Positions 23,457 to 29,342 of a stretch of DNA of 64,000 nucleotides are shown piece by piece. The translations under genes were made by a program, and so were the position numbers. The DNA comes from an uncultured Clostridia bacterium. GTDB taxonomy: Bacteria; Bacillota; Clostridia; Oscillospirales; Ruminococcaceae. The notes below the pieces were generated by a model. It was not told the origin of the DNA, ran no database searches, and saw nothing but the letters and a program-made list of their open reading frames with translations. Location: contig CANQWC010000004.1 of assembly GCA_947627455.1 (NCBI GenBank), forward strand, positions 35,159 to 99,158, read 5' to 3'. Each line of letters begins with the position of its first letter. Position 1 is the first letter of the stretch.

Positions 23457-23942
23457 TCACTCTGAGCCGCCGTCAAGAGCGCTGCTTTTTATCTCGCCCA
23501 AAATTCTGGCGGCCTCGGGGCTGTTTGAGTCTTCTCTGAGAAGTTTTAACGCCGAATAGATCTCGTCGGCATAAGGCATCATCGCCTCACGGTTGATGAG
23601 CATGGCCTCGGAAACCGCGTAGCAAACGCTCGCAACTGCGGGGTCGGCGTCGGAATGGAGCTTCGGGTTGACGTCGGCGCGAATGTCCGACTCGGTCACC
23701 AGCACCGAAAAGGCGTGAAACTGCTCGGCCGCGGCGTTCCAGTCGCTGAGCTTGCCGCTCTCGAGGTAATCCTCAAGATCATCGGCGGCATAGATAAGGT
23801 GGCTTTCGTAGTAGACCTTGTTCCACCTGATGTATTTGTTGAGGTCGATTTTCGTCGACAGCCAGAGTATGCAGAAAATTATCGCGACAAAAAACCAAGC
23901 AAGAAGCATCAGCTTGCCCTTGGTCGACTTTGAAATCTTCAT
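23457..23942 (-). CDS. Membrane-anchored protein of unknown function
   Basis: MKISKSTKGKLMLLAWFFVAIIFCILWLSTKIDLNK...; start after AGGTC RBS-like. Confidence 0.7.
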   Translation of the reverse strand: MKISKSTKGKLMLLAWFFVAIIFCILWLSTKIDLNKYIRWNKVYYESHLIYAADDLEDYLESGKLSDWNAAAEQFHAFSVLVTESDIRADVNPKLHSDADPAVASVCYAVSEAMLINREAMMPYADEIYSALKLLREDSNSPEAARILGEIKSSALDGGSE

Positions 23943-23964
23943 GGCTGACCTTTCCGCAAAACGC

Positions 23965-23992
23965 TTGACAAAGATGAAATGTGTGGTATAAT
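23965..23992 (+). promoter_or_regulatory. Promoter of small RNA 1
   Basis: TTGACA-N16-TATAAT; near-identical to 24117-24144. Confidence 0.8.
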
Positions 23993-23998
23993 ATAAGC

Positions 23999-24094
23999 AG
24001 CGAGGAGACCCGACGGGTCGCTGAACGGCAAGGAACAAATGTCAGATTATACTGACAAGAGCCGTTTGTGGATCAGACAAACGGCTTGTTTTTA
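23999..24094 (+). ncRNA. Candidate small RNA 1 (orphan antitoxin-like)
   Basis: Promoter just upstream; hairpins GACCC-gac-GGGTC, GTCAG-attata-CTGAC; terminator AGCCGTTTGT-ggatcag-ACAAACGGCT-TGTTTTT; no ORF. Confidence 0.65.
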
Positions 24095-24116
24095 TGTCGG
24101 AGCTCGAAGCTGCCCC

Positions 24117-24144
24117 TTGACAAAGCCGAAATGTGTGATATAAT
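24117..24144 (+). promoter_or_regulatory. Promoter of small RNA 2
   Basis: TTGACA-N16-TATAAT. Confidence 0.8.
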
Positions 24145-24150
24145 ATAAGT

Positions 24151-24233
24151 AGCAAAGAGCTGATTTGGCTCAGCTAAGTTTAACAGTTACAAAAAGCAAC
24201 CGCCACTTTGGAAGAGCCGGCGGTTACTTTTTT
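24151..24233 (+). ncRNA. Candidate antitoxin RNA (type I TA), convergent with the 23-aa ORF
   Basis: 5' hairpin AGCTGA-tttggc-TCAGCT; terminator AACCGCC...GGCGGTTACTTTTTT shared in both directions. Confidence 0.65.
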
Positions 24234-24295
24234 ATGGTTTTGAATATTTCAAGAATGATAAAAGCCAAAACAACTATAAGTATCAATTCTTCCAT
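24224..24295 (-). CDS. Candidate type I toxin, 23-aa hydrophobic peptide MEELILIVVLAFIILEIFKTIKK
   Basis: ATG at 24295, SD AAGGGGGTGG, consensus promoter 24347-24375 minus, stop at the base of the shared terminator. Confidence 0.65.
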   Translation of the reverse strand: MEELILIVVLAFIILEIFKTIKK

Positions 24296-24346
24296 TCGCT
24301 GCCACCCCCTTTCGGGGCTTTACCGCATCAGCTCTCTGCTGAAAGA

Positions 24347-24375
24347 ATTATACAATATATTTTTATTTTTGTCAA
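24347..24375 (-). promoter_or_regulatory. Promoter of candidate toxin mRNA
   Basis: Minus strand TTGACA-N17-TATAAT (perfect consensus). Confidence 0.8.
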
Positions 24376-24412: not shown

Positions 24413-25855
24413 TTAATAGGCCTTGCCCCAAACGACCATGCAGGTCGCGGGCTTGCCGCAGCAGACGCATTTGTCGTCTATCTGCTCCTGATCAAAGGGT
24501 ATGCAGCGCGAGCCTGCGCCCGTGAGCTCTTTGACCTTTTTCTCGCACTCTTCGTTGCCGCACCACATCGCCTTGACGAAGCCGTCGCCCTTTTCGGCGA
24601 GAGCGGCGTTTATCTCATCGACCGACTTGCAGGCGTAGGTCCTGCGCTCGCGGTTTTCAAGGGCTTTCTGATACATTCCGTCGTGAACCGCCTGAAGCCG
24701 CTCGTTTACGCGCTCGACAAGCTCATCGAGAGGTATAAAGGTCTTGTTGCGGTTGTGCCTTTCAACGGCGACGCAGTGGCCCTCTTCAATATCCCTCGGG
24801 CCGATCTCAATTCTCAGCGGAACGCCCTTCATCTCATACTCGGAATATTTCCACCCGGGCGACTGCTCGGAGTCGTCAAGCTTTACCCTCAGCCCCGCGG
24901 CCTTGAGGGTCTCGTAGAGCTCGTTCGCCTTTTCGAGGACGCCCTCTTTATGCTGGGCGACGGGGATTATCACAACCTGAATAGGCGCGACGGCGGGCGG
25001 AAGAACAAGGCCGTTGTCGTCGCCGTGGGTCATTATTATCGCGCCGATGAGGCGGGTGGTCACGCCCCATGAGGTCTGGTGGGGGACGCATACCGTGTTG
25101 TTCTTGTCGGTATAGGTGATGCCGAAAGCCTTTGCGAAGCCGTCGCCGAAATAGTGCGAGGTGCCCGCCTGAAGCGCCTTGCCGTCATGCATAAGCGCCT
25201 CGATGGCGTAGGTCGAGACCGCGCCCGCAAACTTGTCGCTCTCGGTCTTCTTGCCCTTGATGACAGGCATCGCGAGGGCCTGCTCGCAGAAATCGGCATA
25301 GACGTTTAACATTCTCTCGGTCTCTTCGATCGCCTCCTCGGCGGTGGCGTGGATAGTGTGGCCCTCCTGCCACAAGAACTCGCGCGAGCGCAGGAACGGA
25401 CGGGTGGTCTTTTCCCATCTCACAACCGAGACCCACTGGTTATAGAGCTTCGGGAGGTCGCGGTAGCTATGAACAATGTTCGCGTAGTGCTCGCAGAAAA
25501 GCGTCTCAGAGGTCGGGCGGACGCAGAGGCGCTCTTCAAGCTTCTCGTTTCCGCCGTGGGTGACCCACGCAACCTCGGGCGCGAAGCCCTCGACGTGGTC
25601 TTTCTCTTTATTCAGCAGGCTCTCGGGAATGAACATCGGCATACAGACGTTCTCGTGGCCGAGCTCCTTGAATTTTGAATCCAGAATCTTCTGCATGTTC
25701 TCCCATATCGCGTAGCCGTAGGGGCGAATGACCATGCAGCCCTTGACCGAGGTGTATTCGATCAGCTCCGCCTTTTTTACTATGTCGGTGTACCACTGCG
25801 CAAAATCCTCGTCCATTGAGGTTATCGAGGCAACCAATTTCTCGTTTTTAGCCAT
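24413..25855 (-). CDS. proS: Proline--tRNA ligase (type 3, short form)
   Basis: [37 protein letters not shown]. Confidence 0.96.
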
Positions 25856-29243: not shown

Positions 29244-29308
29244 TTATTTGCCGCCTTTCAAAAATTGCAGATAGGGCAATTATACTACAATGAAAAGGGA
29301 AAATCAAG

Positions 29309-29342
29309 ACCCGCCCGTTTCTTTTGAAACAGGCGGGTTTTT
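29309..29342 (-). terminator. Terminator
   Basis: GACCCGCCCGTTTC-tttt-GAAACAGGCGGGTTTTT. Confidence 0.7.

What the first reader, a model, noticed from the sequence alone, without database searches (positions are those of the whole stretch)
23960..24240. Tandem twin small RNAs from near-identical promoters; first copy looks like a toxin-less orphan antitoxin
CTTGACAAAGMYGAAATGTGTGRTATAATATAAG occurs at 23964 and 24116. Each is followed by a 5' hairpin and a terminator within ~95 nt. The distal ends also align (CGGCTTGTTTTTATG vs CGGTTACTTTTTTATG), which suggests duplication of the whole RNA gene. The first copy has no small ORF opposite its terminator; instead it abuts the second promoter. The 5' hairpin loops differ (GACCC/GGGTC vs AGCTGA/TCAGCT), as expected if target specificity diverged.
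Basis: partly seen in the sequence, partly recalled or inferred. Interest (0 to 1): 0.68.

Follow-up and report, generated by a model that had tools for sequence, protein, structure and literature searches.

The report
Antidote RNA left without its toxin
Two small RNA genes sit in a row in a rabbit-gut Clostridia genome: the second is the antidote half of a tiny-toxin/antidote pair, and the first is an antidote whose toxin is still present at the same spot in related species but is missing here, an arrangement that recurs across the genus.

Summary
The two promoters are real and far beyond chance. Copy 2 (A2) is the antitoxin RNA of a convergent type I toxin-antitoxin (TA) module: it shares a two-way terminator with T2, a 23-codon hydrophobic ORF on the other strand (24224-24295). 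Copy 1 (A1) is an orphan type I antitoxin. In four related species, including the sister species (A1 93% identical), A1 at the same gene address faces an intact small toxin-like ORF (T1). T1 was not found in this 99.4%-complete genome. A non-sister species has the same toxin-less A1 before A2/T2, so the toxin was probably lost at least twice. A1's first 60 bases are unchanged between the window and its sister, whose neighbouring genes match at only 62% of 4-fold sites. The arrangement is general: of 57 A2-type antitoxins in the genus, 9 lack a toxin, and all 9 lie 4-9 bases upstream of the next antitoxin promoter. Another genus shows an intermediate that keeps only the toxin's last codons. Expression and function were not testable. 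Three of the nine orphans have decayed, so lasting function is possible but unproven.

The parts
23965..23992 (+). Promoter of A1 (TTGACA, 16 bases, TGG-TATAAT)
   Evidence: 12/12 consensus; 33 of 34 bases as in sister species G024
23999..24095 (+). A1, orphan antitoxin RNA (start inferred from the -10 box)
   Evidence: R1 model 108 bits; fold z -4.3; orthologues in five species, four of them facing an intact T1 ORF
24007..24019 (+). A1 5' hairpin GACCC-GAC-GGGTC
   Evidence: One pair changes on both sides (G-C to A-U in G017)
24041..24056 (+). A1 middle hairpin GTCAG..CTGAC; on the other strand it may be the T1 mRNA terminator in species with T1 (inference)
   Evidence: One pair C-G to U-A in two species; minus-strand terminator-like site
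24060..24095 (+). A1 terminator stem AGCCGTTTGT/ACAAACGGCT and U-run
   Evidence: Terminator scan; the window has a U-A pair where the other five have C/A
24096..24115 (.). Junction where the T1 ORF, leader and promoter are missing, compared with G024, G023, G017, G022
   Evidence: Sequence comparison
24117..24144 (+). Promoter of A2
   Evidence: 12/12 consensus; near-identical to the A1 promoter
24152..24234 (+). A2, antitoxin RNA of the complete module
   Evidence: R2 model 69 bits, E 5.6e-14; terminator covariation
24157..24171 (+). A2 5' hairpin
   Evidence: Fold; helix 97.7% paired in 29 copies, but varying on one side only
24190..24234 (.). Two-way terminator shared by A2 and T2 mRNA (3' overlap, about 40 bases)
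   Evidence: Inverted repeat with U-runs on both strands
24224..24295 (-). T2, ORF of 23 codons MEELILIVVLAFIILEIFKTIKK, putative membrane toxin
   Evidence: Conserved opposite A2-type antitoxins in many genus units; toxicity inferred
24305..24317 (-). CCCCGAAAGGGGG hairpin that holds the T2 ribosome-binding site
   Evidence: Predicted fold of the leader
24347..24375 (-). Promoter of T2 (TTGACA, 17 bases, TATAAT)
   Evidence: 12/12 consensus

Best explanation
A2 with T2 is a complete convergent type I TA module: T2 mRNA encodes a small hydrophobic peptide and hides its ribosome-binding site in a hairpin; A2 is transcribed towards it, shares its terminator and so is antisense to its 3' end, and duplex formation should block or destroy T2 mRNA (inferred). 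A1 is the antitoxin of a second, different module, A1/T1, that stands at this address in relatives. Here the T1 ORF, leader and promoter are gone between the A1 terminator and the A2 promoter, leaving an intact antitoxin gene (loss shown by comparison; deletion in a tandem array is the inferred event). A1 is probably still transcribed but has no cognate target in this genome. It remains almost fully antisense to the sister species' T1 mRNA, so it should still silence T1 if T1 re-entered (inferred).
For: Intact T1 opposite A1 at the same address in G024, G023, G017, G022; T1 absent from the window genome; A1 93% identical to G024 with its first 60 bases unchanged; A2 model with terminator covariation and T2-like ORFs opposite 47 of 57 genus copies; nine further A2-type orphans all directly upstream of the next promoter; partial-deletion intermediate in another genus.
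Against: No expression or toxicity data. T1 and T2 match no curated toxin family. Five G024 toxin assignments were corrected by eye. Genomes are metagenome assemblies.
Confidence: 0.85

Rival explanations
1. A1 is kept by selection as a working orphan: a standby antidote (anti-addiction RNA) against T1-carrying relatives, or a trans-acting RNA with a new target. This adds a present function to the same origin.
For: No change in the first 60 bases relative to G024, while 4-fold sites of neighbouring genes are 61.6% identical; the G028 orphan is no more divergent than paired copies; promoter and terminator intact; six of nine A2-type orphans look intact.
Against: The date of toxin loss is unknown; a loss in about the last fifth of the branch gives the same pattern. 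Three of nine A2-type orphans have a decayed 5' hairpin. No target was identified.
Confidence: 0.3
2. A1 is a young relic: the toxin was lost recently and the RNA gene is simply not yet decayed.
For: Decayed orphans exist in the genus; T1 was probably lost independently in two lineages.
Against: G028 carries two toxin-less A1-type RNAs with intact stems, one no more divergent than paired copies.
Confidence: 0.5
3. The upstream orphan serves the next module in cis, for example by read-through that raises A2 levels or by shielding A2 from upstream transcription.
For: Orphans always lie directly upstream of another unit, 4-9 bases from U-run to the next promoter in the A2 type.
Against: The A1 terminator stem is strong and has one more pair than in G024; the position also follows automatically from toxin loss in a tandem array.
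Confidence: 0.1
4. The two RNAs are a recent duplication of one RNA gene.
For: Near-identical promoters and similar terminator tails.
Against: Bodies no more alike than shuffles; models do not cross-match; A1 is orthologous to A1/T1 antitoxins elsewhere.
Confidence: 0.04

Closest known systems
TxpA/RatA, BsrG/SR4 and related Bacillus type I modules; Hol-Tox peptides (PF16935)
   Same: Convergent genes, RNAs overlapping at their 3' ends, small hydrophobic peptide with a basic tail (PMC8167048). Some toxins opposite family-wide A2-like antitoxins come close to PF16935 (21.1 bits, cut-off 23.3).
   Different: T1 and T2 themselves have no significant Pfam or NCBIfam match; they are shorter (23-35 codons against 58-59 for YonT and TxpA); the RNAs have no Rfam family.
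par locus RNA I/RNA II (Fst), Enterococcus
   Same: Convergent RNAs with a common two-way terminator; short membrane peptide with a charged tail (PMC8167048). The ribosome-binding site of T2 is held in a 5' hairpin; that this also holds for RNA I is from my own knowledge.
   Different: par has direct repeats at the 5' ends, which make the two RNAs complementary; here the 5' ends match in the same sense and are not more complementary than swapped partners. No match to the Pfam Fst family.
C. difficile RCd antitoxins (e.g. RCd11, RCd12)
   Same: Convergent type I modules in Clostridia; RCd12 silences the non-cognate toxin CD0977.1 in trans and tolerates at least three mismatches (PMC7699646).
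   Different: Prophage-borne duplications; no sequence relation to A1/A2 was tested or seen.
Tandem ldr/rdl repeats and degenerate hok/sok loci, E. coli
   Same: Tandem type I copies; partly degenerate chromosomal loci (PMC4147584).
   Different: Different layout and toxins; the antitoxin-only copy abutting the next promoter is not described there.

Membership tests
Type I TA module (A2/T2) | Small hydrophobic peptide ORF | tested here: met
   T2, 23 codons, conserved opposite A2-type antitoxins
Type I TA module (A2/T2) | Antisense RNA gene with own promoter and terminator | tested here: met
   Perfect promoter; structure conserved with terminator covariation
Type I TA module (A2/T2) | Peptide toxic, RNA silences it | not testable with these tools
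   No experiments
Type I TA module (A1) | Toxin ORF present in the same genome | tested here: not met
   No T1 in the window genome; hence orphan antitoxin, not a TA module
Orphan type I antitoxin (A1) | Orthologous RNA faces an intact toxin in relatives | tested here: met
   G024, G023, G017, G022
Orphan type I antitoxin (A1) | RNA is expressed | not testable with these tools
   No RNA data; promoter intact
par/Fst | Complementary 5' ends of the two RNAs | tested here: not met
   Cognate complementarity no higher than swapped, p = 0.81; same-sense similarity instead
par/Fst | Fst-type peptide | tested here: not met
   No Pfam hit to Fst
Hol-Tox (PF16935) | Profile match of the peptide | tested here: not met
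   T1, T2: none; relatives in other genera sub-threshold, best 21.1 against 23.3 bits
Any Rfam family | Covariance model match | tested here: not met
   Nothing at gathering score; only chance-like sub-threshold hits

The most novel reading that the evidence does not exclude
Toxin-less antitoxins in these arrays are not debris but kept standby antidotes: lineages shed the toxin and keep the RNA, gaining lasting immunity to re-entry of that module, so that the array is a record of modules met before.
Probability: 0.25. Interest if true: 0.7.

Novelty: new variant of a known kind. Interest (0 to 1): 0.5.

Why it matters
It offers a comparison of one type I antitoxin with and without its toxin at a single address, so that 'what happens to an RNA antitoxin once its toxin is gone' becomes testable. 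It also points to an RNA-antitoxin superfamily with no Rfam model, with hits in 29 of 126 sampled genera of one Clostridia family (only part of the hits inspected, a few are ordinary terminators), and to mixed tandem arrays in which loss of the toxin with retention of the antitoxin recurs.

Tried and rejected
Whole-RNA duplication. Seed pairing of antitoxin 5' hairpins with toxin leaders: duplex energies no better than shuffles, cognate pairs no more complementary than swapped ones. Carriage by viruses: no T1, A1 or T2 relatives in viral contigs. A1 outside the genus by exact pattern: only chance-like hits, mostly in G+C-rich genomes; the model found distant tandem relatives in genus g59, among several ordinary terminators. 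A second T1 elsewhere in the window genome: none. A weak R2 hit at 29267-29342 looks like an ordinary terminator. A promoter for the neighbouring gene inside A1: a minus-strand TATAAT in the middle hairpin loop exists only in G000 and G024, so it was dropped. Literature on orphan type I antitoxins in such arrays: none found in the open library, which does not prove absence.

Full report
OBSERVATION. The two 34-base promoter segments are present at 23964 and 24116; none is expected by chance in the window. They are perfect sigma-70 promoters with a TG before the -10 box, and a third perfect promoter (24375-24347) fires from the other side. Copy 1 folds far better than its shuffles (z = -4.3), copy 2 moderately better (z = -2.5). 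Opposite copy 2 lies a 23-codon ORF, MEELILIVVLAFIILEIFKTIKK, whose GGGGG ribosome-binding site is held in a CCCCGAAAGGGGG hairpin; its last codons (KK, stop) are read from the antitoxin's U-run. No such ORF lies opposite copy 1.

WHERE IT IS. The window is from a 1.99-Mb, 99.4%-complete genome. Genus-mates that carry this locus are metagenome-assembled 'uncultured Clostridia' from samples labelled 'Lapin', which I read as rabbit. The locus lies between an uncharacterised ~161-codon gene (geneX, 23457-23942, no Pfam hit) and prolyl-tRNA synthetase (proS, 24413-25855).

COPY 2 IS A TYPE I ANTITOXIN. A covariance model of 29 copies (R2) is supported by compensatory changes in the terminator stem: 15 cells changed on both sides, none of 500 shuffles as high, and sliding the pairing destroys it; the 5' hairpin varies on one side only. 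In the 31 genus genomes it finds 57 forward antitoxin genes, of which 47 face a small ORF that reaches the terminator. For five of these, all in G024, the script's automatic pick is in the wrong frame; by eye in L183 the likely toxin there is VEEYLFYCLLLILIIELLNRFHKKK. One further unit (G022:C20:8541) has an ORF that lost its stop codon. Across 299 genomes of the taxonomic family, 48 genomes in 29 of 126 genera have hits. Of 26 family loci examined, most face peptides ending in KK or KKK, some close to Pfam Hol_Tox (best 21.1 bits, cut-off 23.3), while a few are ordinary terminators or lack a toxin. A2/T2 therefore belongs to a widespread convergent type I superfamily, similar in layout to TxpA/RatA and par/Fst (PMC8167048), without an Rfam model.

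COPY 1 IS AN ORPHAN ANTITOXIN. Strong A1 matches occur in five other species of the genus, always at the geneX-proS address. In G024, G023, G017 and G022 the RNA faces a toxin-like ORF T1, e.g. MTAFLEIVADVCSIIRFVLDLLIYISKREDKK, with its own leader and promoter. In the window genome and in G028 the ORF, leader and toxin promoter are gone and A2/T2 follows at once. A T1 profile finds it in those four genomes and not in the window genome; a loose single-sequence search also finds nothing there. G028 is only 76% complete, so its lack of T1 elsewhere is weaker evidence. G028 carries a further toxin-less relative upstream (A1b), and G022 has an A1b whose toxin ORF is deleted although a toxin-side promoter remains. 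A tree of three neighbouring genes groups the window genome with G024, which has T1, at 100% support and places G028 elsewhere, so the toxin was probably lost at least twice.

IS A1 STILL UNDER SELECTION? A1 of the window and of G024 differ at 4 of 89 compared sites and at none of the first 60, whereas neighbouring genes are 71-89% identical and 4-fold sites only 61.6%. By my estimate (Jukes-Cantor, about 0.27 substitutions per site on the window branch) about 16 changes would be expected in 60 bases under neutrality over the whole branch. Zero means either selection or a toxin loss in roughly the last fifth of the branch. In G028 the orphan is no more divergent from paired copies (0.19-0.21) than paired copies are from each other (0.09-0.23). 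This favours maintenance but does not prove it. The four differences from G024 lie in the terminator part, so A1 should remain nearly fully antisense to the sister's T1 mRNA; in C. difficile an antitoxin tolerates at least three mismatches in trans (PMC7699646).

NOT A WHOLE-GENE DUPLICATION. Outside the promoter, A1 and A2 are no more alike than shuffles (p = 0.15), and neither model detects the other copy. Promoter spacers of tandem neighbours average 0.72 identity, against 0.65 for other pairs in the same genome and 0.46 between genomes. Promoters are therefore copied or homogenised within genomes while TA bodies are exchanged (inference). The -35 side of the T2 promoter (TATTTTTGTCAATTAAAAG on the + strand) also equals the flank of the T1 promoter in G024, as expected if an A2/T2 body sits in an A1/T1-type frame (inference).

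THE ARRANGEMENT RECURS. Nine A2-type antitoxins without toxin were found in five species; each lies 4-9 bases before the next antitoxin's promoter. By eye, the orphan's terminator type differs from that of the complete unit that follows. Six look intact; three have a damaged 5' hairpin. In another genus (g59, G183:C141) a tandem pair shares an identical promoter, and the first copy is followed by only the last codons of the toxin, an intermediate of toxin loss. The simplest account is deletion inside mixed tandem arrays that removes the toxin but spares the antitoxin with its terminator.

UNEXPLAINED. In 16 complete modules the 5' ends of antitoxin and toxin mRNA resemble each other in the same sense much more than swapped partners do (22.8 against 13.7; none of 20,000 permutations as high) and are not more complementary (p = 0.81). 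par/Fst has the opposite geometry. The module is thus framed by inverted repeats that start near the two transcription starts. Gene conversion between the arms, or a shared 5' element, are both possible. The toxin-mRNA starts in that set were placed by a simple -10 box rule, and units where it clearly failed were left out.

LIMITS. There are no expression data; toxicity is inferred. All genus genomes seen by name are metagenome assemblies, although the toxin-less order is seen independently in two species. The literature search covered open-licence papers only.

Noticed in passing
L152-L171 (family units); window 24152-24341: Cognate antitoxin and toxin mRNA 5' ends are alike in the same sense (none of 20,000 permutations as high) and not more complementary (p = 0.81), so modules are framed by inverted repeats that co-vary within each module.
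   Followed up: partly
L179, L181, L183, L186, L187, L191, L196, L204: Nine toxin-less A2-type antitoxins, each 4-9 bases before the next antitoxin promoter; G027:C3 has two in a row.
   Followed up: yes
L219/L212 (G183:C141:2655-2939): In another genus a tandem antitoxin pair with identical promoters; the first copy keeps only the toxin's last codons.
   Followed up: partly
L032:1793-1990 (G022:C6): A1b with its toxin ORF deleted internally while the toxin-side promoter and start of the leader remain.
   Followed up: partly
L197 (G022:C20:8541-8624): MNENLY-type toxin whose stop codon reads GCA instead of TAA, so the ORF runs on.
   Followed up: no
L185 (G022:C23:15096-15742), L184, L194: Tandem arrays of complete modules with different toxin subfamilies but identical or near-identical antitoxin promoters.
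   Followed up: partly
L173 (G051:C63), L178 (G035:C21): Antitoxin-like genes in other genera with promoter and terminator but no facing small ORF.
   Followed up: no
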